Source of the DNA: an uncultured Blautia sp.
GTDB lineage: Bacteria > Bacillota > Clostridia > Lachnospirales > Lachnospiraceae
Direction of reading: 5' to 3'
Assembly: GCA_946557785.1 (NCBI GenBank)
Contig: CAMNTH010000002.1
Span: 186,001-250,000, forward strand
Length of the DNA: 64,000 bases
The position numbers and the translations under genes are program-made. The notes beneath the pieces are model-generated. The model was not told where the DNA came from. It did no database searches and saw only the letters and a list, made by a program, of their open reading frames with translations. The first letter of the stretch is position 1. The number at the start of each line of letters is the position of its first letter. This document shows, in pieces, positions 45,079-61,350 of the stretch.

Positions 45079-45744
45079 TTAACTTCCAATGATTTTTCCA
45101 CTCAAACATCCAGGTAATACGGAAGACTCTTTATTTGATTTTGGGAAAATATACAGAACTTCTGATTTCATTCTGGCCCACATGCTTTCGCAGCGGACAT
45201 TATCATGACATCTTCCACCTGCGCTGTTCATGCTTTGCCGGATGCCATATTCATGGATTGCATCCCGGTAAAGCTGACTGGTGTACTGGTTTCCCCTGTC
45301 ACTGTGAATAATTGCCCCACGGATGCCTGGATACGCTTCCGCCGCATTTTTCAGTGTCTGCGCACATAACGGGGCTTTCCTGTTGGTATCCATCGCCAGG
45401 CCGATCACGCTGGAATCGAAGCAGTCAAAAACAGCGGAAACATATAGCTTTCCATCGCTGGCTTTGATCTCTGTTATGTCTGTTATGCACTTGGTCAGCG
45501 GCTCCTCTGACATGAAATCACATTTTAACAGATTTTCTGATTTACAGGCTTCCCTATCCGCTTTCGTAATTCCGTTTGGCTTGCGCCTGGGATGATGGCT
45601 GATGCCAATATCTTCCATAACACGGTAAACGGTACGTTCGCTGGGAATATCCACATTTTCGGGCTGTTTTAACATTAATGCCTGATACATACGGATAAGT
45701 CCGTAAGTGTCATTACAGTTATCTTCCGCAAGTATCTCCATCAT
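45079..45744 (-). pseudogene. Truncated IS3-family transposase (OrfB, DDE)
   Basis: The 221-codon frame holds the rve catalytic core: 'KCITDITEIK' (first Asp), 'IHSDRGNQYTS' (second Asp) and 'NVRCESMWARMKSE' (Glu). The region after the Glu should continue for about 40 residues to the family's C-terminus, but here it ends in an unrelated 'LPGCLSGKIIGS'. The N-terminal H-T-H_21-like part is also interrupted, because a TGA lies about 14 codons upstream of the ATG. Neither terminal inverted repeat could be identified. The element is dead. Confidence 0.8.
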
Positions 45745-46118: not shown

Positions 46119-48020
46119 TTATTCTGCGTCCGTATCCACGGCAAGGGGATCAAGCCCTTCTGCTACAAGAAAAGCATTGCAGTCCCTTACGGAGTACATG
46201 AAGAACTTATTGATAAAGGCGTTATATAAGATATGTGCGTCATTTTCCGCAAAACGGAAGCCGAAACCCGATTTGCTTATCATGGCTCGGCTTACTTCCG
46301 GCGGAAGATGCATGCCGATACATAAGGCGACCACGCTCTCTATGTCCTTGGGATAATCCGCGCGGTTTCTCATCCTCTGTATTTTCTTTCCGTTAATCAG
46401 TGATTCTTCAGATAGCTTTTCCTCTGTAATATCAACCCAGGTCATAAGATAAGTCAAGGCGTCTTTGAAAGTCATCGGCTCAATGGTGCGAAGAACCTCG
46501 GTAATCTCCTTGTTCTGATTCAGAATGGCATCCGCCTCCGCCATAATGTTTCCGTTGATATCCTTGGAAAAGGAAGTCATGAACTCCATCCCAGAATTGA
46601 CATCGCGGAACAGGACGCATTCCTTATAGAATTCTTCGCCGTACTTGTTTTTCGCCTTTACCGACAAATCGAATGCAAGACAGCATTCATCGACATGGAG
46701 TCTGCCATACTCCGTCATGCGCACGCCGCCATCATCTTGCCTTGTGACATACTTGGGCTTATTCAGGCAGATGTGGGAATCGACAAAAACATAAGCGCCC
46801 CGACTAATCTGTTCAGCCAATTCTGCATTGCTGAAATCGATGATAGCCGCATCTTCCACGCTTATGCTAAAGGTTTGATTCTTTGCGATAGAGCCTTTTC
46901 TGAATGCATGGGGAGGAACATACCGTCTGTCAATGAATGTAAAAGCACCGATTGCTTCTTCGTACCCCGCATCGACCATTCTGATTTTAGCCGCTTGCCT
47001 GGATACGCAAAAGAATATTGCAAGAGCATCGATCACGGGCTCCATCACATCCACAAGCTCAAAGGTGCCTCTTTCTTTGCGAAACTGTTTAATATATTCG
47101 AATGCCTTGATCTTAAAAGTCCCAAGAGACATCTGTATCCTTGGTGCGAGGGTGTTGGCTTGCCACTCCATCCAGTCGTTCGCAGATCGAACAGTAGAAT
47201 CCTTGACGCCGCCGACAACAAGGCAGCGTATCTGGGATGCTTCAGAGTTATAGAGTTACTCCAGCTTGAACGCTTTTCTGTGCCTGTCCCAATGCACACA
47301 TTCATGGACAATAGTGTTATTTACAGCGCCAAGGTTACGGAGATAATATGCTTTCGGATCAACAAGAATCGTTTTCGCACCAAAATGCTCTGTAACGGTT
47401 TCTCCTGTCTCTTCATCGAATACTTCGATGTCGCAAGCCTCAAAGCATATCTGACCGAACACAGAAAAATCCGAAATAATAGAACGCTGTTTGATAGTCA
47501 TCCCCATTTCTCTTGCCAACTCCGAAACGTCCAAAGCCATCGGAGTTTTCAGTGCTTTCGGATAATTCTTTCTCAAAAAGGCTGTGGCCGCCTCTTCAAC
47601 CTGGTCTTTATATAAAATCGGAACCAGAGAATCAGACAGGGGACGGTTATGCTTGGATTTCTGGTTGTATGTGGCAACATTCAGAATTTCAAAATCTGCG
47701 AGTTTCTTGTCCAGATCGCCGGTGCAACGAATATCAAACCACTGCGTTACAAGATCTGATTCATCGTAATGCCGAGTTGTTTCTGACACTTCAATCTCAG
47801 CTTCGACAACCACGTCAAATAGAATCCGCATTTCCGGCTGATCTTCAACCCCTACCATTTTGACATCAATGTCGGATAATTCGGCGGCATCAATATTTGA
47901 CACGACTCTTGAATACAGATCGAGCCTATCGGAGTTTGCTTCTATTTATTCCTTAACAGCGGCAAACAGATCATCATAAAAATGATTTGCCACATATTCC
48001 TTAAATGATCTGTCTGCCAT
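46119..48020 (-). pseudogene. ImmA/IrrE-like metallopeptidase with C-terminal XRE-like domain, interrupted by two in-frame TAA codons
   Basis: One reading frame runs from an ATG at 48020 (M-A-D-R-S-F-K-E-Y) to a TAG/TAA at 46119, 634 codons, broken only by TAA at 47946-47948 and 47256-47258. The middle holds a zinc motif H-E-C-V-H ('TIVHECVHWDRH'). The conserved 'EWQANTLAPRIQM' that belongs to the ImmA/IrrE fold lies just after the second stop. The last ~110 residues align with the helix-turn-helix protein encoded upstream ('MTWVDITEEKLSEES', 'VVALCIGMHLPP'). The ATG is seven bases after the upstream gene. It is probably a nonsense-inactivated gene; suppression is not excluded. Confidence 0.75.
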
Positions 48021-48027
48021 AAAACAC

Positions 48028-48944
48028 CTACTCTCTGTTCTTATTCAAAATGGGCAACCCCATCTTCTTTAGGAAGTCATTTGCATCAAATATGGTAATT
48101 GAATATGCCACGCCAAGAATGAGCTTGAATGCTCTGTCCGCCTTTTTCCCTCCGAGGCTGTATCCTGCAATGATCACAAGCTGTTCTGCTATGAACGGAT
48201 CTAAGGAAAGCCCGATGCAGATTGCTATCACGGTAGGGAGGGACGGCTTATTCTCTCCGCTACGCAGCCGGGATATTGTCTTCTCAGACAAACCGGACGT
48301 TTCTGCAAGCTGCTCGACGGTAATCTCTCCTTCTTCCATCAGCAGTTTCAGGGCATCCCCAAAATCATATGGAAGATTACCGCCACCTCCAGTCGTAATC
48401 AGCCTTGTCCAGTCTTTGACGGACATCTCTGAAAACTTTCCGGCATTCTTGATTTCAACAGTGCCCCCCCCGACCGACGTATGCTGTAGCGAACATGTGG
48501 GTTTCTCCTGGGTACTACACCAGTACGATATTTTCGGGAACGCTCAGTATGGATGCAGTAATCATCCAGCTTACTGCGAATACTGTCTTTTATGGAGATT
48601 CTTCCTGCAGCTACTTCTATACAATCCGGTGACCGCAGTACCATGCGCCCTTCCGCAAACACATATCTCCCTGTGTCCACGCATTTGCGGAACTCGACCG
48701 ATTCAGCATACCTATCCAGAAGTTGAACGGGAGAGTATTGTGGTATTCCAACCCTTATTCTGACTGCTGGATGTGGAGCAGTTTTTCCAACAACGATTTT
48801 TACTCCGGGTACTTTGCTCACTTCAACAGTATCCACGGTCTTTACAGCTACTCTGCCTCTTGATGCCTTCGATGTCTTTCTCTTCGCAGATCCTTTTGAC
48901 GGAGGTACAATCTTATATCTGCTGCTTTTTCTGCTCTTAGCCAT
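48028..48944 (-). pseudogene. XRE-type helix-turn-helix protein split by a G8 tract (two frames)
   Basis: Frame A starts at an ATG at 48944 (GGAGGTGATGAAT upstream). It has a basic Lys/Arg/Ser-rich N-terminus and a body 'VRIRVGIPQYSPVQLLDRYA' to 'VRYSIRRSGG', then turns into unrelated residues after eight G (complement 48464-48471). Frame B continues smoothly across the same tract: 'GGGTVEIKNAGKFSEMSVKD', then the HTH 'ITVEQLAETSGLSEKTISRL' and 'VIAICIGLSLDP'. With nine G the two would be one ~305-residue protein. As written, frame A ends at 48399 and frame B has its own ATG at 48426. The N-terminal half is of unknown family. Confidence 0.7.
48464..48471 (-). repeat. G8 homopolymer inside the XRE gene
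   Basis: Eight consecutive C on the plus strand, G8 in the sense strand, exactly where the two halves of the XRE protein change frame. It is the longest G/C run I noticed in the window. Confidence 0.85.
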
Positions 48945-49008
48945 ATTCATCACCTCCGTCAAGAATCAACCATTCTAAAAACAGTAAAGACGGGATTGAT
49001 TCTGTTTC

Positions 49009-50220
49009 TTAATAATTGAACTCAATTCCTGTTACTACGGAATTAAAATCGCAAGATGGCAGTGCCTCAAAATAATCCGTTCTAAGACCCACATCCAAAA
49101 CGAACATAAACGCAGCAAAGTCATAAATGACCGGCTCGCCCTTGTTTGCCATGATGTTCTTTCGTATACTTTCGGTTTTGGCAATGAGGCAAGTATACTG
49201 ATACTGCTTATCAATAACCTGCGTATTTCCGTTCGGGTGCGCCTTTTGTAAATGCTGTCCGCTGGTCAGCGCAATAAGATTCTCAATGTAGTCGGCAATC
49301 TCCGCAAATTCATTCTGTGGGAAGATGTGATGCATATGCGTCGCTTTCTCTCCAACCGAGAAGCGATCCAGAACTTCTGACAGCCCTTCACGGTGGTCAT
49401 CATTAAACTTACGGAGATACTTCATCGCCCTACTTATACGGTACTGATACATCTGCTCAGTCTTCGGCTGCGGATTGAAATCACCACGAGCAACATTCTT
49501 ATCCTTGCCTACGGCATCATCCCTCCAGTTGGTCTGATTATACATGATCTTGTCATAGGTAATCATAGCTCTGGAAAGATGTCCCTTCTCAGCACCCTTC
49601 TTGTGCAGTTTGCAGGCAATCGGATTCAGTACCTTGATAAAGATGCGGTTTGCCTCCACCGCTGTGTTGATAGGCGTATATCTGATGCAGAAATCAGAGA
49701 ACCTGGTCTTTAGCTCCTGCAGAGACTCTTTTGTCTGTAACTCAAAAAAGGTCTCAAAGCTGTCCCACAGGCCGCTGTCTTTCAGCGTTTTTTCTATGTA
49801 AAGGCAGAGGAACTCGAATGAGTTACGCTCACGAAGGGCAATGTACTCCAACACATCCATGTTTTCTACGCTGAACTGAATGGTGTTATGTACCACACCG
49901 TCCTCACGCAACACTCCGGCGGCCGCCAGCATCTTCATCGGTTGCCGGAAGAACTTGTTATATTCATCAAGCGTTGTTCTTATGGTCGGATCCGGCTTGC
50001 CGAACAGATGTTGTACGTTTTCTATTGCATATTCGGAGTGCCAAATATCCGGCGACTGGAACGGCTGCTGACCACCATTCTGAATGTAATCCACGATACA
50101 GTCTGCCACAAAGCAGACCGCATCCAAGGCACACTTCTGGTCAATCCAGCGACCATTCCCGGTTTTGCGGACGTCATAGTCATGTTCGTCCAAAAATCTC
50201 TGTAAAATGTTACTCGTCAT
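49009..50220 (-). CDS. HNH endonuclease, predicted restriction enzyme of the operon
   Basis: A 403-residue protein. The C-terminal third has an HNH (beta-beta-alpha-metal) motif, 'ATHMHHIFPQ', then 15 residues to Asn ('IENLIAL') and 8 more to His ('SGQH'). This spacing closely matches the active-site pattern H-H-x14-N-x8-H of the Type IIS enzyme MnlI. The N-terminal two thirds have no recognised motif and may recognise DNA. The start ATG overlaps the methyltransferase stop by 11 bases, so translation is coupled. Restriction activity is inferred from this pairing. Confidence 0.75.
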   Translation of the reverse strand: MTSNILQRFLDEHDYDVRKTGNGRWIDQKCALDAVCFVADCIVDYIQNGGQQPFQSPDIWHSEYAIENVQHLFGKPDPTIRTTLDEYNKFFRQPMKMLAAAGVLREDGVVHNTIQFSVENMDVLEYIALRERNSFEFLCLYIEKTLKDSGLWDSFETFFELQTKESLQELKTRFSDFCIRYTPINTAVEANRIFIKVLNPIACKLHKKGAEKGHLSRAMITYDKIMYNQTNWRDDAVGKDKNVARGDFNPQPKTEQMYQYRISRAMKYLRKFNDDHREGLSEVLDRFSVGEKATHMHHIFPQNEFAEIADYIENLIALTSGQHLQKAHPNGNTQVIDKQYQYTCLIAKTESIRKNIMANKGEPVIYDFAAFMFVLDVGLRTDYFEALPSCDFNSVVTGIEFNY

Positions 50221-52735
50221 CTTCTTTTAACACCCCGTAAAAATATACACTTGTCTTATCCACATTAATGGACTGCGTTGACAGATTTCTTGCAATTCCG
50301 TAGAACCGCCTATATTCATCCGTGGAGAAATACGCTCTTTGTCTCCTGGTAAGCCGGAGCGGTTTCTTCGGAATCAAAACAGCAACTGAACCGTCCGGGA
50401 TAGTTCCTGGAAGATTCTCAATGACTCGCGGATTATAGGTCATGTTCGGCGTGAGGTAAACACTGTCATCGTTCACATACCGATAAGCGGAAAGCCCGAC
50501 AGCTTTCTCCTCCGGCAGATATACATCATAGTCCGAGATATGTGTGACGCCTTGGCCGTCATCGTCAATATTACGCGCCTTAATTACCCACAAAGAAGGG
50601 TTTTTCTGCTCCTGGCTTGTAATCGACTTTGTGATCTGTCTGTCTCGGAATACAGAGAAAACATCAAACAGTAACTTATCCGCTACCACATCAAACTCCT
50701 CATCCCGGTAAATGATGAAGTATGGGAACTTCTCATCCGTCAGGTAAGACTGCTCTCGGACAGACTTGCGATTGAATTTCATGCTGTAAACGGTTGTTTC
50801 TTTCGGCTTCATCTTCGGATATACAATGAGGCACATGGTTTCAATCGACACCCCGGTAAAGCCGTACCGCCCAAAATCGATGATGGTTTCAATTCTCATC
50901 TGACGCAGAAGATTTCTCGTGTCCTCAAATTCATCTGTACTGAGAAGTGTCTTATTCAGCACCAAGGCAACACAGTCGCTACAGCGGATACATTTTTCCA
51001 AGAACATCTCAGAGAGATTATTTGTAATCCTGTTTGCGTTTGCTGCAAGAGCAAGGTCGATTTCCGGCGTTCTTCCTTTCAACTTTGAGAAAGGCGGATT
51101 TCCAACGGCAAGGTCATACCGGACCGTTTCTTGGTAGGTAAGAAAATCATGGCATACTCTGTTGATGGTAAAGTTTTGCGGAACATCAAGCTTTCCCAAA
51201 ATTATATCGAGTGTTTCAATGCTATCTGGATCGATATCTACCACATCAAGTATGACATGGGGAACATCCTCGTATCTCTTAAATAAGAACGGGATGAAGC
51301 TGCCTGCTCCTACAGACGGCTCTAATATCCGAATTTCGTCCTTGCTGAACGTCGGCAGACTGCCCATGATCTCGTTCACGATAAACTTATTGGTGTAAAA
51401 AGCAGCATTCTTTTCCCTGCGGGCATTGCAAAGTTCCGTGATTCGCATAAGAGATGCAACATCCAGAGCCAAAGGATTATCCCTTAAAAAAGAACACAGA
51501 TTTTCCCTTTCATCCAGATGATAATCCGCAATAATCCTGTTGATCTCAATGGATTCACATCTTTTCTGCTCCAGTCTGCTGCGAATTGCCACTGCAAGCT
51601 GTCGCATGATTTCAGTCGGCACAGCCTCACCCAGACACTGTCGGATGTTTATTTCGTGGTTTTTATAGATATCCTGCTTTTCTCTTTCCGAGAGCGCATT
51701 CAGTTCCTCAAGGCTCATATCCACCCATCGGAAATCATCAGGGATAGTCATCATCGCCATTAACTCCCTGATGCTATATACCCTGTCTTGCTCTGGGTGG
51801 ACTGTATTCTGCGCAGCTAATTGATCATTGCGGGTGTGGACACACTGAACGAAGCGATCCCAAGGCTGCCTCGTATATTTATCTCTGTTTTTCCTGATGT
51901 TCTCTACTATCTTTCCATCCACCACTCTATGTGGACGTTTTGCGGGATTAGCATTGTCAAACGCTGACTCGCCCTCTTTTAAATCATGAATCCACTCTCG
52001 CATTTCAGGCTTATATGTGCGGAATGCATGGTAAAAGTCATCTGCACATATTTCACCCCACTCAAGCCTTGGATAACCATAGATTACATCCCGCAGTGTC
52101 TTTTCTGTCCTGAACTCAGGATATATGTCATAGGGTGTAATGTTGTTCCTATATGCTTTATCCACGCCGATCATTAAGGTTCTCGTCCTGGATGAGTTAG
52201 AACCATAATTCATAAAATTTAAGATTCGCCCGGAAATGATGTAGTCTTTTCCAAGCACCTCGCGGACATACTCTCCAATAGGAACGATCCTTTCATCCGG
52301 AGTAATGCACAGCGTCTTTTGAAACGCCATCACATTCTCAAGAATGAAAAAGCGCGGCTTAATTCTATGAATAATTTCTACAGACTCAACCACAAGGCTG
52401 TTTCTGTTGATTTCCTTATCGTTCTTTTTGTGATTGATAACGCTGATACCCTGACAGGGAGGAGTAGCAATGATTACATCTACACGATCATTGCCCTTTT
52501 TCTCCCACATATGGATTTCATCGTAAATCCGCTGTTTAATATCCTCAGACGTAATATCGCCGGCAATATAGCCGGAGTCATATTCACATTTATGATTGTA
52601 ACGCTGCACCTGCATACGACGTTCGATGATCTCGTTTGTTGCAATGCAGTGGTATCCTTCCATCTGGAAACCATGACAGCCAACACCCGCAGAGCTAAAC
52701 AGCGTCACATACGTCAAGCTCTTATCTTTTAACAT
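50210..52735 (-). CDS. Bifunctional DNA methyltransferase: C5-cytosine MTase fused to N6-adenine MTase
   Basis: An 841-residue fusion. Residues about 8-395 are a C5-cytosine methyltransferase: motif I 'TLFSSAGVGCHGF', motif IV P-C-Q ('ATPPCQGIS') with the catalytic Cys, motif VI E-N-V, motif VIII 'SRTRT' and motif X 'RQCLGEAVPTEIM'. Residues about 440-830 are an adenine-N6 enzyme: 'AAFYTNKFIVNEIM', motif I 'EPSVGAGSFIPFL' and motif IV N-P-P-F ('AVGNPPFSKLKGR'). Both active sites look intact. Two activities in one chain suit a target whose strands differ, one modified at C and the other at A. GGAGG precedes the ATG; the XRE regulator gene lies 18 bases upstream. Confidence 0.9.
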   Translation of the reverse strand: MLKDKSLTYVTLFSSAGVGCHGFQMEGYHCIATNEIIERRMQVQRYNHKCEYDSGYIAGDITSEDIKQRIYDEIHMWEKKGNDRVDVIIATPPCQGISVINHKKNDKEINRNSLVVESVEIIHRIKPRFFILENVMAFQKTLCITPDERIVPIGEYVREVLGKDYIISGRILNFMNYGSNSSRTRTLMIGVDKAYRNNITPYDIYPEFRTEKTLRDVIYGYPRLEWGEICADDFYHAFRTYKPEMREWIHDLKEGESAFDNANPAKRPHRVVDGKIVENIRKNRDKYTRQPWDRFVQCVHTRNDQLAAQNTVHPEQDRVYSIRELMAMMTIPDDFRWVDMSLEELNALSEREKQDIYKNHEINIRQCLGEAVPTEIMRQLAVAIRSRLEQKRCESIEINRIIADYHLDERENLCSFLRDNPLALDVASLMRITELCNARREKNAAFYTNKFIVNEIMGSLPTFSKDEIRILEPSVGAGSFIPFLFKRYEDVPHVILDVVDIDPDSIETLDIILGKLDVPQNFTINRVCHDFLTYQETVRYDLAVGNPPFSKLKGRTPEIDLALAANANRITNNLSEMFLEKCIRCSDCVALVLNKTLLSTDEFEDTRNLLRQMRIETIIDFGRYGFTGVSIETMCLIVYPKMKPKETTVYSMKFNRKSVREQSYLTDEKFPYFIIYRDEEFDVVADKLLFDVFSVFRDRQITKSITSQEQKNPSLWVIKARNIDDDGQGVTHISDYDVYLPEEKAVGLSAYRYVNDDSVYLTPNMTYNPRVIENLPGTIPDGSVAVLIPKKPLRLTRRQRAYFSTDEYRRFYGIARNLSTQSINVDKTSVYFYGVLKEDDE

Positions 52736-52753
52736 GAGTGACCTCCGTTTTCG

Positions 52754-52954
52754 CTATTTTTTATATTCCACAATGTCCCCGAAATCGACATCCAATGCTT
52801 CGCAAATCTTCTCCAACACGGTCATTGTCACTTCCTGGTCTTTTTTCATTCGGGTGACGGTGTTAGGTGCAATTTCAGCAGCTCTGCGCATTTCGGCAAC
52901 GCTCATATTCTTATCTATCAATAACTTCCATAATCTGTTGTATGAGATTGACAT
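52754..52954 (-). CDS. Small XRE-family regulator (controller-protein-like)
   Basis: A 66-residue helix-turn-helix protein: 'YNRLWKLLIDKNMSVAEMRR', 'IAPNTVTRMKKDQEV' and 'LEKICEALDVDFGDIVEY'. This size and position, immediately before a methyltransferase gene and under the same promoter, suit a controller protein that times restriction and modification. The start at 52954 is chosen since GGAGG abuts the ATG at 52960. A generic YozG-like XRE repressor is the alternative. Confidence 0.85.
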   Translation of the reverse strand: MSISYNRLWKLLIDKNMSVAEMRRAAEIAPNTVTRMKKDQEVTMTVLEKICEALDVDFGDIVEYKK

Positions 52955-53027
52955 TTTCATCCTCCAATGTCATCAAGCCCAAGGATGCACATAGCCTCAC
53001 CTTGGCAGTGTAAAATGTATCAAGTAT

Positions 53028-53056
53028 ATTATAGCACAGAATTTGTCTTAGTACAA
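53028..53056 (-). promoter_or_regulatory. Promoter of the restriction-modification operon
   Basis: TTGTAC (53051-53056), 17 bases, TATAAT (53028-53033) on the minus strand, about 75 bases before the XRE start. Confidence 0.82.
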
Positions 53057-53103
53057 GAGTTTTTCGCATATAGTTGCGAAATTTTATTTATACCACAACA
53101 GAA

Positions 53104-53219: not shown

Positions 53220-53405
53220 TCAGTACCGGCTGTAATCAGAACCAAGTTCTTGCAAATTTGCTATTCGATCATCACTGTGGGGATGAGTAGCATACAATGC
53301 TTTCAAAAGTCCGTTTTCTGGTGCAGTACACATGTGCCGATCTAAAACACTTGCGAGAATAGAACCGTAGCCAAGATCAAAAGCATACTTGTCCGCTACG
53401 TACTC
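53220..53405 (-). pseudogene. C-terminal fragment of an M48-type metallopeptidase
   Basis: The frame reads 'NEYVADKYAFDLGYG', 'LLKALYATHPHSDDRIANL' and a stop at 53220-53222. E-x3-A-D and T-H-P-x3-x-R-I are the pattern after the H-E-x-x-H of M48 (HtpX-like) peptidases; the catalytic part is missing. It joins another gene fragment near 53405. Confidence 0.65.
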
Positions 53406-53491
53406 ATTTTCTCTGACGGCAATATCTGCTCTCTTTGCAGGTTTGAATCTACCATAATTATAATGGCTTCATCATCTGTCAAGTTACGGAC
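53405..53491 (-). pseudogene. ParB-like gene fragment
   Basis: About 27 residues, 'RNLTDDEAIIIMVDSNLQRE' and on to 'ILPSEK', the conserved core of ParB partition proteins. It is sandwiched in one open frame between helicase sequence and the M48 fragment, so the frame is a chimera and not a functional gene. Confidence 0.65.
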
Positions 53492-53503
53492 AATGCAGAC
53501 GCT

Positions 53504-54275
53504 GAATGTCCCGTCATTCTTTGGCGTGGACAAATCGCAGAACAATAACTGTGTTAATTTCTGCTCCTTCCCCTCCTCCCAAAATTGGTAGACTTCGTTG
53601 ACGCAGGCATTGACTTTGCTCTCCGGCTCGTCCGGCAGCATTTCATTCGTAAGCCGCTGGTCTAACGCCAGCTTGCGCCCGTCATTGGTAATCAAGAGCA
53701 TATTGTCCTGCATGGGGTTCACCATGCCGTTTCGCACACGCTCCGCCCGTTCCCCTAGTGTCTGTACCATATCCTTTTGTATCTCGCTGGGTTTTACCGC
53801 CACCACCTTGTATTCCGCTTCCGGCACGGGCAGGTTCAGCATATCGGCGGTCTGGCGGCAGGGTAGAGCTGGAGCCACTCGGCGGCAAACTGCTCTATGA
53901 TGTGGTTTGGAACCACAATCATGGATTTGTTGCAGAGTCCCAACCGCTTGCACTCCATCGCCGCCGCAACCATCGTATAAGTTTTCCCGGCTCCCACCAC
54001 ATAGGCAAGCAGGCTGTTCCCCCCGTAAATGATGCGGGCAGCCCCGTTTTTCTGGTGCTGCCTTAACTTAATTTCCGGGTTCATGCCATAGAAATTCAAA
54101 TGGCTCCCGTCATATTCCCTCGGCCGGATGGCGTTGAAATTCTCATTGTAATAGGCCGTCAATCTCTGCCTGCGCTCCGGGTTCTGCCAGATCCAGTCCT
54201 GGAACGCCTGCTTGATTAAGTCCTGCTTTCCCTGCGCTATGGCGGTTTCCTCTTTGTTTAGGACTGCCTTTTTCT
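53504..54275 (-). pseudogene. Conjugative-element helicase (LtrC/SNF2-like) fragments with an internal deletion
   Basis: The upstream part reads 'VLNKEETAIAQGKQDLIKQA', 'IRPREYDGSHLNFYGMNPEI' and a helicase motif I 'VVGAGKTYTMVAAAMECKRL', to 'EWLQLYPA'. A frame change near 53855 leads to a later part of the same family, 'ADMLNLPVPEAEYKVV', 'NMLLITNDGRKLALDQRL' and 'LLFCDLSTPKNDGTF'. The middle of a protein that normally exceeds 2000 residues is gone, and both ends are cut. These large methylase-helicase proteins belong to Tn916/Tn1549-like elements. Confidence 0.75.
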
Positions 54276-54799
54276 TGCCGGAGCCGGAACCGCCAATCAC
54301 AAGGATATTTTTATTCCTTGCATACTTCGGCTGTTTCGGTCTGCCTGACATCATAAGCCTCTCTGTCTGTGTCAGCAGGATATTGTTCTCGAATACAGAA
54401 TCCATGTAAGGCTCTATGTCTTTTGCGTTGCCCCACCTTGCGGAAACCGTACTCCACACCCTGCCGGAACTTCTTGGCATTCTTGGCTTTGAAATATACC
54501 ATAAGCCTTAAAGCGATACCGCAGCACACCCCAATCAACAAATCCTTTGGGTGGAAACTTGGTAACGGGTTGGAAAATAAGTCCTCCATCCCCGCCATGA
54601 CCGCCATCATCTTTGCGGAAGCGTCCTGCCCCGGCGACACCCGCCACAGATACATCACTTTGTCACAGAAATATCCTGCAAGCACATAAGGCAGGTTCAT
54701 AAGGATAAGTTTCTTTTTGTCAATATTCCCGGTCTTTTCCTTGAGCTTTTTGGGGATTGATTTTAAGTCTTTGGCAATGCCGTTTATTATATTACTCAT
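54272..54799 (-). pseudogene. Type IV coupling protein (VirD4/TraG) N-terminal fragment, frameshifted
   Basis: Starts M-S-N-I-I-N-G-I-A-K-D-L and has two membrane helices, then 'KKFRQGVEYG'. A single extra T (A run at 54444-54446, plus strand) shifts the frame; the next frame continues 'SARWGNAKDIEPYMDSVFEN' to the Walker A 'VIGGSGSGK'. There the sequence switches to helicase. Coupling proteins bring DNA to the conjugation channel; this one lacks its ATPase body. Confidence 0.78.
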
Positions 54800-55086
54800 A
54801 GGCTCTGCCCCCTGTCCTTGTTCTTCTCCCGGCTCCGCTCCCGGTTTTTGTCCTGTGATACTGCGTCTTTGAAATGCTTCAGCTTCTCTCTCAGGGAAAC
54901 CCTGCCTTTCTTTTTCTCATTGCCATAAACAAATTCTTTGAATGCCTGTGCGATTGCGTCAGCATCCCTGCCCTTGAAAAGCACCACATATTTTGGCGGC
55001 ACGGTTGTCTTGTCTTTCTTTATGGCAAAATCAACATTGTACTTTTTTGCCACACGCTCAAAAGGGCTTTGCTTGGCGCTCTCATT
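54796..55086 (-). pseudogene. PcfB/DUF3801-like conjugation protein, N-terminus missing
   Basis: The C-terminal region 'FERVAKKYNVDFAIKKDK', 'VVLFKGRDADAIAQAFKEF' and a Lys/Arg-rich tail belongs to the PcfB (DUF3801) family that precedes the coupling-protein gene in conjugative elements. Order and spacing (a four-base overlap with the coupling protein) are preserved. Upstream of about 55086 the sequence belongs to an unrelated opposite-strand gene. Confidence 0.65.
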
Positions 55087-55094
55087 TACAAAAA

Positions 55095-55503
55095 GCCTGT
55101 GCCGATTCAGTCTGTCGATGAGCTGCCCGACGGGTTTGGCGCTCTTTACGACAACGAGCAAAAGGCTATTTTTGTCTGCCGCGGAATGGAGGCAAACAAT
55201 CTGTTCTGCGAGGTATCAAAGGCGCTGGCACAAGCGGAGCTTGCACAGACAAGCGAGGAATACGACCCGCAAAATGCCGGCTTTAAGGCGCATTGCGTTT
55301 CGTATATTCTCGGCAAAGAGTTCGGCGCTGATGTGAGCGATTACAGTTTTGAGAATCCCACTGATTTTCTCCGCACCGACGACCCGCAGGAAATTCGCGC
55401 CGAGCTTTCCGAAATCCGAGATACCGCCTACGACATTTCCGCAAGAATGACAAGGGCGCTGGAAAAGAGCAAAGCGCCCCGCAATGCGGAACAGGAGCGC
55501 TGA
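55095..55503 (+). pseudogene. ArdC-like/DUF1738 antirestriction protein, C-terminal fragment
   Basis: Plus-strand frame 'LPDGFGALYDNEQKAIFVCR', 'EVSKALAQAELAQTSEEYDP' and 'CVSYILGKEFGADVSDYSFE', ending R-N-A-E-Q-E-R. This is the tail of ArdC-like proteins of Clostridial conjugative elements. The DNA-binding and zinc regions are missing on the left, where the junction with PcfB lies. Confidence 0.6.
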
Positions 55504-58725: not shown

Positions 58726-61350
58726 CTATCTTTGTTTAATAGCAGCCTGTGCTGCTGCAAGTCTTGCAATCGGAACACGGAATGGAGAACAGGAAACGTA
58801 GTCCAAACCAATCTTATGGCAGAATTCCACGGATGTCGGGTCACCGCCGTGCTCACCGCAGATACCGATGTGCAGTTCTGGGTTAACCGGTTTTCCTAAT
58901 TTAATAGCCATTTCCATTAACTTACCAACACCGATCTGGTCAAGTTTTGCAAATGGATCATTCTCGAAGATCTTAGCGTCATAGTAAGCATTCAGGAACT
59001 TACCAGCATCATCACGGGAGAATCCGTAAGTCATCTGGGTAAGGTCGTTTGTACCGAAGCAGAAGAAGTCTGCTTCTTTTGCAATATCATCTGCAGTCAG
59101 AGCTGCTCTTGGGATTTCGATCATAGTACCAACTTCATATTTCAGATCGGAACCTGCTGCTGCGATTTCAGCATCTGCTGTCTCAACAACAAATTTCTTC
59201 ACATATTTCAGCTCTTTGATATCGCCAATAAGCGGGATCATAATCTCTGGTTTAATATTCCAGTCAGCATGAGCTTTCTTTACATTGATTGCTGCACGGA
59301 TAACTGCGGTTGTCTGCATCTTAGCAATTTCCGGATAGGTAACTGCAAGACGGCATCCACGATGACCCATCATCGGGTTGAATTCTACCAGAGACTCAAT
59401 AACTGCTTTGATATCTTCGACAGACTTGCCCTGTGCTTCTGCAAGTTTCTTGATATCTTCTTCTTCAGTCGGAACGAACTCATGAAGCGGCGGATCCAGG
59501 AAACGGATTGTAACAGGGTTGCCTTCCAATGCTTCAAAAAGGCCTTCGAAGTCTTCCTGCTGATATGGAAGAACCTTCTCAAGAGCTTTTTCTCTTTCTT
59601 CAGCAGTTGTAGAACAGATCATTTCACGGAATGCATCAATACGTCCCTCACCGAAGAACATATGCTCTGTACGGCAAAGACCAATACCTTCTGCACCAAG
59701 CTCAACAGCTTTCTTAGCGTCAGCTGGAGTGTCTGCGTTTGTACGAACTTTCAGAGTTCTGTATTTGTCAGCCCAAGCCATGATTCTGCCGAACTCGCCA
59801 GCGATGGTAGCATCAACAGTAGCGATGGTTCCTTCGTAGATATTACCTGTAGTACCATCAATGGAGATAAAGTCTCCTTCGTGGAACTCTTTGCCGCCTA
59901 ATGTGAATTTCTTATTCTCTTCATCCATAGCAATATCGCTGCAGCCGGATACACAGCACTCACCCATGCCACGAGCAACAACTGCTGCGTGAGAAGTCAT
60001 GCCACCACGAACAGTCAGGATACCCTGTGCGGATTTCATACCTGTAATATCTTCCGGAGAAGTTTCAAGACGTACAAGTACGACTTTTTCTCCTCTTTCT
60101 GCCCATTCTACAGCATCATCTGCTGTGAATACGATTTTACCGCATGCAGCTCCAGGAGAAGCGCCAAGGCCTTTTCCGATCGGAGTAGCCGCCTTTAATG
60201 CGGCAGCGTCAAACTGCGGATGCAGTAAGGTATCAAGGTTACGTGGGTCGATCATTGCAACTGCTTCTTCTTCAGTTCTCATTCCCTCGTCTACCAGGTC
60301 ACAAGCGATTTTCAAAGCAGCCTGAGCTGTTCTCTTACCATTACGTGTCTGAAGCATATACAGTTTGCCATGCTCTACGGTAAACTCCATATCCTGCATG
60401 TCTCTGTAGTGATCTTCCAAAGTCTTGCAAACGTTCTTAAACTGAACAAATGCTTCCGGGAATTTCTGTTCCATTTCGGAAATGTGCATAGGTGTACGAA
60501 CACCAGCAACTACGTCTTCACCCTGTGCATTGGTCAGGAACTCACCGAACAGACCGTTGTTTCCTGTAGCAGGGTCTCTGGTAAATGCAACACCGGTACC
60601 ACAGTCATCACCCATGTTACCAAATGCCATCATCTGTACGTTAACTGCAGTACCCCAGGAATATGGGATATCATTGTCACGACGATATACATTTGCACGT
60701 GGGTTGTCCCAGGAACGGAATACAGCTTTGATAGCGCCCATTAACTGTTCCTTCGGATCAGTTGGGAAATCAGCACCAATTTTTTCTTTATATTCAGCCT
60801 TAAACTGGTTAGCAAGCTCTTTCAAGTCGTCTGCTGTCAGTTCAACGTCCAGAGTAACGCCTCTTTCTGCTTTCATTTTGTCAATAAGCTCTTCAAAATA
60901 TTTCTTACCAACTTCCATAACAACATCAGAGTACATCTGGATAAATCTTCTGTAGCAGTCCCAAGCCCAGCGCGGGTTGCCGGATCCTGCAGCTAATACT
61001 TCAACAACTTCTTCATTTAAACCAAGATTCAGGATAGTATCCATCATGCCTGGCATAGAAGCTCTGGCACCAGAACGAACGGAAACAAGCAGAGGATTTT
61101 CTTTATCACCGAATTTTTTTCCGGTAACTCCTTCCATTTTGGTGATTGCTTCCATGATCTGACCCATGATCTCGTCATTGATCTGTCTTCCGTCTTCATA
61201 GTACTGCGTACAAGCTTCTGTTGTAATAGTGAAGCCCTGCGGTACAGGAAGACCAAGGTTTGTCATTTCAGCAAGGTTGGCACCTTTACCACCCAGAAGG
61301 TTTCTCATAGTAGCATTACCTTCTGTAAACATGTAAACCCATTTTGCCAT
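58726..61350 (-). CDS. ppdK: Pyruvate, phosphate dikinase
   Basis: The 874-residue enzyme interconverts pyruvate, ATP and phosphate with PEP, AMP and pyrophosphate, central to Clostridial glycolysis/gluconeogenesis. The ATP-grasp domain starts 'MAKWVYMFTEGNATMRNLLG'. The phospho-His is in 'GGMTSHAAVVARGMG', and the PEP-binding barrel has 'GLCRTEHMFF' and 'CGEHGGDPTSVEF' with the catalytic Cys. AGGAGG precedes the ATG. The 3' end is intact but abuts the recombinase fragment, and no terminator is visible. Confidence 0.97.
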   Translation of the reverse strand: MAKWVYMFTEGNATMRNLLGGKGANLAEMTNLGLPVPQGFTITTEACTQYYEDGRQINDEIMGQIMEAITKMEGVTGKKFGDKENPLLVSVRSGARASMPGMMDTILNLGLNEEVVEVLAAGSGNPRWAWDCYRRFIQMYSDVVMEVGKKYFEELIDKMKAERGVTLDVELTADDLKELANQFKAEYKEKIGADFPTDPKEQLMGAIKAVFRSWDNPRANVYRRDNDIPYSWGTAVNVQMMAFGNMGDDCGTGVAFTRDPATGNNGLFGEFLTNAQGEDVVAGVRTPMHISEMEQKFPEAFVQFKNVCKTLEDHYRDMQDMEFTVEHGKLYMLQTRNGKRTAQAALKIACDLVDEGMRTEEEAVAMIDPRNLDTLLHPQFDAAALKAATPIGKGLGASPGAACGKIVFTADDAVEWAERGEKVVLVRLETSPEDITGMKSAQGILTVRGGMTSHAAVVARGMGECCVSGCSDIAMDEENKKFTLGGKEFHEGDFISIDGTTGNIYEGTIATVDATIAGEFGRIMAWADKYRTLKVRTNADTPADAKKAVELGAEGIGLCRTEHMFFGEGRIDAFREMICSTTAEEREKALEKVLPYQQEDFEGLFEALEGNPVTIRFLDPPLHEFVPTEEEDIKKLAEAQGKSVEDIKAVIESLVEFNPMMGHRGCRLAVTYPEIAKMQTTAVIRAAINVKKAHADWNIKPEIMIPLIGDIKELKYVKKFVVETADAEIAAAGSDLKYEVGTMIEIPRAALTADDIAKEADFFCFGTNDLTQMTYGFSRDDAGKFLNAYYDAKIFENDPFAKLDQIGVGKLMEMAIKLGKPVNPELHIGICGEHGGDPTSVEFCHKIGLDYVSCSPFRVPIARLAAAQAAIKQR

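What the first reader, a model, noticed from the sequence alone, without database searches (positions are those of the whole stretch)
49009..52960. Restriction-modification operon with a fused C5-cytosine and N6-adenine methyltransferase and an HNH nuclease
The sequence shows one 841-residue protein with both a P-C-Q C5-MTase core and an N-P-P-F N6-MTase core. It overlaps a nuclease whose H-H-x15-N-x8-H spacing resembles the HNH site of MnlI. HphI and MnlI, both Type IIS with HNH nucleases, use one m5C and one m6A methyltransferase because their targets are asymmetric. Here the two activities sit in one chain. I infer an asymmetric recognition site with m5C on one strand and m6A on the other, and shifted cleavage. 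The small XRE gene in front would be the controller.
Basis: partly seen in the sequence, partly recalled or inferred. Interest (0 to 1): 0.78.

Follow-up and report, generated by a model that had tools for sequence, protein, structure and literature searches.

The report
HpyAV-type restriction operon, VanU-like switch
A gut bacterium carries a DNA-cutting immunity operon of a kind already known from Helicobacter pylori; the less expected part is its small switch gene, whose close relatives and matching DNA site stand in front of several other kinds of antiviral operon.

Summary
In detail: xre (68 aa), a fused m5C+m6A methyltransferase M (841 aa) and an HNH nuclease R (403 aa) form one minus-strand operon. 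The fused chain is not new. It is the layout of HpyAV (CCTTC 6/5), published in 2010, whose fused enzyme was later assigned both methyl marks. M and R match PADLOC Type II profiles nearly end to end, and the HpyAV catalytic H-H-N-H spacing is invariant in 22 of 22 aligned nucleases. MnlI/HphI were the wrong comparison; the recognition site is untested.

The less expected part is xre, which is VanU-like (VanUG is a known autorepressor). In 10 of 11 xre-bearing systems, window included, TCGCA-N6-TGCGA lies exactly 7 nt upstream of TTGNNN-17-TATRAT, although similarity around it is lost. Regulators with the same recognition helix and operator also precede Type I, IIG, AlwI-type and TIR operons; the wider family precedes BREX, Septu, CBASS and Type III genes, and a few non-defence genes. 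In five regions of four genomes, nearly identical promoter-xre cassettes precede four different cargoes. I read xre as an exchangeable autoregulatory head of defence operons; binding and repression are inferred, not shown.

The parts
53064..53079 (-). predicted operator TCGCA-N6-TGCGA of the Xre protein
   Evidence: exact in window and 9 of 10 xre-bearing loci, always 7 nt before the -35; protein binding not shown
53028..53056 (-). predicted sigma-70 promoter: -35 TTGTAC at 53051-53056, 17-nt spacer, -10 TATAAT at 53028-53033
52754..52960 (-). xre, 68-aa HTH_26 / VanU-like regulator
   Evidence: Pfam PF13443 E 1.6e-21; NCBIfam VanU NF000090 70.6 bits, below its cut-off of 150
50210..52735 (-). 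M, 841-aa fused C5-cytosine and N6-adenine methyltransferase
   Evidence: PADLOC PDLC03277 E 3.2e-263, residues 1-837
51725..52711 (-). C5-cytosine methyltransferase domain of M (residues 9-337)
   Evidence: Pfam PF00145
50726..51415 (-). N6-adenine methyltransferase domain of M (residues 441-670)
   Evidence: Pfam PF02384 and PF07669
50210..50220 (-). 11-bp overlap of the end of M with the start of R, suggesting translational coupling
   Evidence: sequence
49009..50220 (-). R, 403-aa HNH restriction nuclease
   Evidence: PADLOC PDLC03488 E 1.3e-132, full length
49252..49332 (-). HNH active site H297-H298-x15-N314-x8-H323 of R
   Evidence: invariant in 22 of 22 aligned R proteins; same spacing as HpyAV H294, H295, N311, H320

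Best explanation
The operon is a HpyAV-type Type IIS restriction-modification system under an autoregulatory VanU-like head. Shown from sequence: one chain with a C5-cytosine and an N6-adenine methyltransferase domain, and a downstream HNH nuclease gene whose start overlaps the end of M. Inferred from HpyAV: M marks the two strands of a short asymmetric site (CCTTC or close to it, m5C on one strand and m6A on the other), and R cuts unmethylated sites a few bases away with its H-H-N-H site. Inferred from comparison: Xre binds TCGCA-N6-TGCGA at about -59 to -44 of its own promoter and autoregulates xre-M-R, most likely as a repressor; in a naive host the promoter is free, M is translated before R, and the operon is then throttled. 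Operator, promoter and xre form a portable cassette that also heads other defence operons in Clostridia.
For: R-M: and the HpyAV literature. Three profiles that M matches are 823, 387 and 445 positions long, the lengths of M.HpyAV, M1.Hin4II and M2.Hin4II. Module: close relatives share about 49-53 kb of the window, the three genes. Regulator: exact operator in 10 of 11 xre-bearing systems with constant 7-nt and 17-nt spacing, all 11 exact occurrences in 432,210 bases then held being these sites or the window's own copy. Helix motif PNTx[TA][RK] goes with the operator in 16 of 17 regulators and 0 of 65 without it. Operator-plus-promoter searches gave 0 matches in the reversed control, and 4 of 6 sites found by DNA alone are followed by such a regulator. 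32 of 40 proteins behind 39 regulators match PADLOC against at most 11 of 50 controls. VanUG represses its own promoter through inverted repeats at -70 to -20.
Against: 12 of 22 HpyAV-type loci with the start of M covered lack xre, so it is not essential. The operator lies upstream of the core promoter, which also suits an activator; VanUG has two adjacent palindromes, the window one. L074, with 9 of 10 operator bases and the right spacing, precedes a fatty-acid kinase; L116 seems to precede a two-component system; 2 of 6 sites found by pattern have no xre. The bare palindrome is no more frequent in the host genome than its reversed control, 2 sites each. The helix motif was chosen after seeing the alignment.
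Confidence: 0.6

Rival explanations
1. Same R-M, but Xre works as an activator in the manner of C proteins: bound upstream of the -35 it recruits RNA polymerase, delaying full expression after entry into a new host.
For: Operator ends 7 nt before the -35 in 11 of the 15 exact-operator promoters, leaving the core promoter free; xre is the first gene of the operon.
Against: Nearest characterised relative VanUG is an autorepressor; -35 and -10 are near consensus without help; in L085 the operator overlaps the -35.
Confidence: 0.27
2. Same enzyme family, but the window's clade reads a site other than CCTTC.
For: R is only 44-55% identical between the window's clade and the more distant rows, and the Clostridia clades differ in the region after C5 motif VIII (WDRF.QCVHTRND against WDKVAPCIHTRND).
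Against: Isoschizomers HpyAV and Hin4II themselves share only 48% in R.
Confidence: 0.35
3. xre is a neighbour that rides along with the module and has nothing to do with M and R.
For: xre is missing from 12 of 22 HpyAV-type loci.
Against: Only 18 bp separate xre and M; DNA similarity ends at xre while the operator beyond it stays exact; the same pair stands before other defence genes.
Confidence: 0.07

Closest known systems
HpyAV R-M (HP0053/HP0054), Helicobacter pylori 26695 (PMC2816704, PMC3936762)
   Same: Fused C5+N6A methyltransferase (823 aa), R downstream in the same direction, HNH residues with the same spacing
   Different: The HpyAV description that I read mentions no regulator gene; sequence of HpyAV not compared here
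Hin4II R-M, Haemophilus influenzae RFL4 (in PMC2816704)
   Same: Homologous C5 and N6A methyltransferases and nuclease
   Different: M1 (387 aa) and M2 (445 aa) are separate; a Clostridia relative (L121) is split the same way
VanUG of the vanG operon (PMC4405338, passages)
   Same: Xre protein, first gene of its operon, binds inverted repeats upstream of and over the -35 of its own sigma-70 promoter with 17-bp spacing
   Different: Two adjacent imperfect 14-bp repeats; controls a vancomycin-resistance operon; window protein scores 70.6 bits against a cut-off of 150
RptR (PMC12255303, passages) and WYL regulators BrxR/CapW (PMC9122601, PMC9122588, listing and abstract starts)
   Same: Regulators found with defence operons; RptR represses its own defence-island promoter
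   Different: RptR has no close structural homologue in its paper, 6-bp TAGCTA sites, and is reported from Gammaproteobacteria with Type I R-M; WYL is another domain family
Controller (C) proteins of Type II R-M (recalled, and as described in PMC12255303)
   Same: Small HTH protein encoded ahead of R-M genes, expected to tune expression
   Different: No C-protein model was matched in NCBIfam; operator and regulator also serve other defence types

Membership tests
HpyAV-type Type IIS R-M | Single M chain with C5 and N6A methyltransferase domains, about 820 aa | tested here: met
   841 aa; Pfam and PADLOC
HpyAV-type Type IIS R-M | R gene directly downstream of M in the same direction | tested here: met
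   11-bp overlap
HpyAV-type Type IIS R-M | HNH residues spaced H-H-x15-N-x8-H | tested here: met
   H297 H298 N314 H323, invariant in 22 of 22; HpyAV residues
HpyAV-type Type IIS R-M | Sequence homology to HpyAV itself | tested here: inconclusive
HpyAV-type Type IIS R-M | CCTTC(6/5), m5C and m6A | not testable with these tools
   No methylome or enzyme assay
VanU equivalog (NF000090) | Score above the curated cut-off | tested here: not met
   70.6 bits against 150; so VanU-like, not VanU
VanU equivalog (NF000090) | Inverted repeat near the -35 of its own sigma-70 promoter | tested here: met
   VanUG sites
VanU equivalog (NF000090) | Represses its own operon | not testable with these tools
   Needs a reporter assay
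Type II R-M controller (C) proteins | Small HTH protein encoded ahead of the R-M genes in the same direction | tested here: met
Type II R-M controller (C) proteins | Match to a C-protein family model | tested here: not met
   NCBIfam at E up to 1 gave VanU, RamB and TrbA only
Type II R-M controller (C) proteins | Activates R expression at low level, represses at high level | not testable with these tools
   Needs a reporter assay
   Their sequences were not fetched

The most novel reading that the evidence does not exclude
A family of VanU-like Xre autoregulators with a matching operator-promoter forms an exchangeable head cassette used across Clostridia to run mechanistically unrelated antiviral operons (R-M types I, II, IIG and III, BREX, Septu, CBASS, TIR). 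Cargo is swapped behind a constant regulator, and operons in one cell that share an operator class could be cross-regulated as a defence regulon.
Probability: 0.5. Interest if true: 0.72.

Novelty: new variant of a known kind. Interest (0 to 1): 0.5.

Why it matters
The enzymes add a gut-bacterial member to a characterised family. The regulator matters more: how defence operons are kept in check is little known outside C proteins, WYL regulators and RptR. A predicted regulator-operator code (recognition helix with P-N-T, operator TCGCA-N6-TGCGA) shared by several defence types makes it directly testable whether unrelated operons are silenced or induced together, and gives a DNA pattern that leads to unnamed defence candidates. 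Five full-text searches listed RptR and WYL regulators as the nearest subjects, and no listed title or abstract start describes this family; most subscription papers and all bioRxiv preprints were outside the library.

Tried and rejected
Getting HpyAV's own sequence: the one genome-contig scan returned no Campylobacterota, the 14 control genomes did not ring for the nuclease profile, plasmids and phages gave 3 and 2 other relatives, and a viral-contig scan matched nothing.

Fold of R: the AlphaFold2 model has mean pLDDT 72.5 but much of the HNH region is below 50; Foldseek against PDB gave 186 matches, none with E at or below 0.001, so nothing is drawn from it. R has no real PDB sequence match (best E 0.28). 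The M model (pLDDT 70.1; residues 209-319 below 50) was not searched.

The bare palindrome as a genome-wide marker: rejected, 2 sites in the host genome and 2 for the reversed control; the second site lies in an ORF that reads as MarR-like.

A palindrome at the 7-nt position for regulators without the P-N-T helix: only a slight rise (mean 2.11 of 5 pairs, 1.07 to 1.87 at other offsets); not claimed.

Papers opened without use: PMC11134628 (passages, no CCTTC) and PMC7145662 (one reference-list hit).
Full report
OBSERVATION. The three ORFs are real and exact: xre 52754-52960, M 50210-52735 and R 49009-50220, all on the minus strand; M and R overlap by 11 bp. M carries a C5-cytosine methyltransferase domain (PF00145, E 1.7e-32, residues 9-337) and an N6-adenine domain (PF07669 E 1.4e-9, PF02384 E 4.7e-6, within residues 441-670); R has only a weak HNH match in Pfam. 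PADLOC puts M in a Type II methyltransferase profile (PDLC03277, E 3.2e-263, residues 1-837 of 841) and R in a Type II nuclease profile (PDLC03488, E 1.3e-132, residues 1-403).

WHAT IT IS. The arrangement is that of HpyAV. From PMC2816704 (I read parts 1 and 2 of 6 and passages): M.HpyAV (823 aa) is a fusion of a C5 and an N6A methyltransferase, the R gene lies downstream in the same direction, the nuclease is an HNH enzyme with H294, H295, N311 and H320, it recognises CCTTC and cuts 6/5; Hin4II is the isoschizomer with separate M1 (387 aa) and M2 (445 aa); ten further fused homologues were already listed in 2010. Three profiles matched by the window's M are 823, 387 and 445 positions long, which suggests that they were built on these proteins; that is an inference. 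The H. pylori methylome (PMC3936762, passages) assigns both m5C in CCTTC and m6A on the other strand to HP0054. The window's R has H297, H298, N314 and H323, the same spacing, invariant in 22 of 22 aligned R proteins; PPCQ and NPP are invariant in 21 of 21 aligned M proteins. For R I aligned 17 of the 24 loci (five near-copies, L002, L003, L004, L008 and L016, and the truncated L023 and L024 left out), the window, two plasmid and two phage-collection loci. So the fused chain is not new, and methylation of an asymmetric site by m5C and m6A is the expected function.

DISTRIBUTION. The nuclease finds 24 loci at 47-94% identity, in records labelled Clostridia and also Synergistes, Bacteroidales, Spirochaetia, Treponema, Chitinispirillales and Kiritimatiellae; many are metagenome bins, so labels are soft. 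In 41 related genomes, own included, 3 have a match to the nuclease profile. One (G005, same genus as the host) has a contig of 148240 bases, the length of the Blautia schinkii contig of L019, and gives the same match values, so the host is probably of that GTDB genus. Compared over window 40001-64000, DNA similarity with the close relatives covers about 48997-52970, the three genes; the one exception is L014, which also matches 58743-61122, a dikinase gene. The module thus moves as a unit.

THE REGULATOR. Of the 22 loci in which the start of M is covered, 10 have a homologue of xre in front (L001, L003, L004, L006, L007, L008, L010, L011, L015, L016) and 12 do not. Similarity detected by blastn ends at the xre start, yet upstream of it the window and 9 of these 10 have TCGCA-N6-TGCGA, each time exactly 7 nt before TTGNNN, 17 nt, TATRAT. 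In the 432,210 bases of loci then held the exact palindrome occurs nowhere else (11 occurrences, two being the window and its copy L025). L015, whose xre is 46% identical, has another palindrome there; L012 has only what reads as a remnant of xre and keeps the promoter with a damaged operator.

NOT ONLY R-M. Operator plus promoter in 391 Clostridia-class genomes gave 3 genomes with a match and 0 in the reversed control. The xre protein has 127 matches in 102 of the same 391 genomes at E at or below 1e-12, among them one beside each of the three operator sites. I fetched the 72 best-scoring of the 126 matches other than the window's own, with downstream DNA. 62 of 72 have a same-strand ORF of at least 60 aa starting within 500 bp, in 31 clusters. 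I scanned 40 proteins from 39 regions, at least one region from each cluster; for L071, L126 and L131 a later ORF was taken, for L073 two. 32 of 40 match PADLOC at E at or below 1e-10: Type I (L072, L079, L120, L139), IIG (L070, L108), Type II (L093, L094, L104, L105, L107, L137), Type III (L078, L109), BrxA and BrxC (L077, L131), Septu PtuA (L075), CBASS cyclase (L135) and others, several of them weak, generic helicase or methylase, or unproven candidate families. The 8 without a match are L071 (TIR by Pfam), two proteins of L073 (one with DUF4062), L074 (fatty-acid kinase), L097 (LuxR-type HTH), L115 (acetyltransferase), L138 (ATPase) (Pfam) and L116 (not scanned with Pfam; reads as a response regulator). 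So the family is not confined to defence. Control: 50 proteins (20 from arbitrary places in 20 of the same genomes, 30 from the window) gave 11 family-member matches, at most 11 of 50. The control is not matched for being next to a regulator.

REGULATOR-OPERATOR CODE. Of 82 regulators (window, 10 loci, and 71 of 72 regions; L080 dropped as a copy of L016), 17 have the helix motif PNTx[TA][RK]; 16 of these 17 have at least 9 of 10 operator bases upstream (15 exact), and 0 of 65 without the motif do; after removing identical proteins 15 of 16 and 0 of 56. The motif was chosen after seeing the alignment and rows are related, so the Fisher value is not used. Of the 15 exact operators, 11 lie 7 nt before a 17-spaced promoter (ten HpyAV-type and L070); L071 and L072 lie 8 and 6 nt before, L073 shows no such promoter, and in L085 the operator overlaps the -35. 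A check by DNA alone: operator plus a looser promoter in 392 and 398 drawn genomes (some shared between the draws and) gave 6 sites other than the window's and 0 in the reversed control; 4 of 6 are followed at once by a regulator, all four with P-N-T; L171 and L173 are not. Behind the four: Type I R-M (L168), IIG (L172), an ORF on the other strand that reads as HsdS-like and then DUF262-type and AbiE genes (L170), and a protein without PADLOC match (L169). Exact-operator regulators of other operons (TIR L071, IIG L070, Type I L072) fall among HpyAV-type ones in the tree, L071 with good support (99/97), but 68 columns resolve little. In L085 the regulator domain is fused to a D12 adenine methyltransferase, followed by a second one and an AlwI-type nuclease.

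SWAPPED CARGO. In five regions of four genomes (L081 and L095 from one, L082, L086, L093; another helix class without the TCGCA operator) promoter and xre are 89-97% identical in DNA. In 9 of 10 pairs the similarity ends between +193 and +281 of the xre match start, that is near the end of the gene; the tenth pair, with the same cargo, runs on. Cargoes: a Ppl-like ATPase (L081, clustered with L082), a HpyAV-like R-M (L086), a Type II methyltransferase (L093), a GajA-like fragment (L095). HpyAV-type genes follow regulators of several branches (window clade, L015, L086, L118, L121); in L121 M is split into 384 and 441 aa as in Hin4II.

HOW IT PROBABLY WORKS. The best characterised relative I found is VanUG: xre scores 70.6 bits against the VanU model (cut-off 150) and matches PDB 3tyr (E 1.1e-16; that 3tyr is VanUG is recalled, the tool says transcriptional regulator). 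VanUG represses its own sigma-70 promoter through inverted repeats at -70 to -20 (PMC4405338, passages). By analogy a Xre dimer at about -59 to -44 autoregulates xre-M-R, most likely negatively. That M is translated before R follows from gene order; the throttling is inferred, and an activator is not excluded.

LITERATURE. Five full-text searches for such a regulator family listed RptR (PMC12255303, passages) and WYL regulators (PMC9122601, PMC9122588; listings and abstract starts) as nearest. No listed title or abstract start describes this family; I did not open the other listed papers.

VERDICT. Observation confirmed. The enzymes are a new member of a known kind; the VanU-like head with its operator, shared with other defence operons, makes the operon a new variant worth testing.

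Noticed in passing
L085:356-4374 (G407:C8): The VanU-like regulator domain is fused to a D12 adenine methyltransferase ahead of a second one and an AlwI-type nuclease, with the exact operator overlapping the -35.
   Followed up: partly
L005, L017, L019, L024, directly before M (for example L024:3298-3492): Where xre is absent, four HpyAV-type loci have another small ORF that reads as a MerR/HTH_17-like DNA-binding protein in the same place (by eye; no profile run).
   Followed up: no
L005:7276-7803 and L015:7268-7825: A second C5-methyltransferase-like stretch (25-29% identity to M) directly behind R in two relatives.
   Followed up: no
L121 (G209:C8): HpyAV-type system with M split into 384 and 441 aa, as in Hin4II, behind a VanU-like xre of another helix class.
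   Followed up: partly
window 46119-48962: Four minus-strand ORFs behind R: 187, 132 (HTH_3), 215 and 350 aa; the 187-, 215- and 350-aa ones had no Pfam match.
   Followed up: no
window 53396-55161 and 45079-45744: Pieces that look like a decayed mobile element around the operon: DUF3801 (E 1.6e-22), a ResIII-like fragment and an rve integrase core.
   Followed up: no
L073 (G116:C23) and L071 (G353:C12): Operons behind the same regulator class and exact operator that PADLOC 2.0 does not name: a 677-aa protein plus a DUF4062/ATPase protein, and a TIR-Sel1 protein plus a 998-aa protein; candidate defence operons.
   Followed up: partly
L074 (G224:C2): A 9-of-10 operator with the standard spacing ahead of a VanU-like xre and a fatty-acid kinase gene: a non-defence neighbour that speaks against strict confinement to defence.
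   Followed up: no
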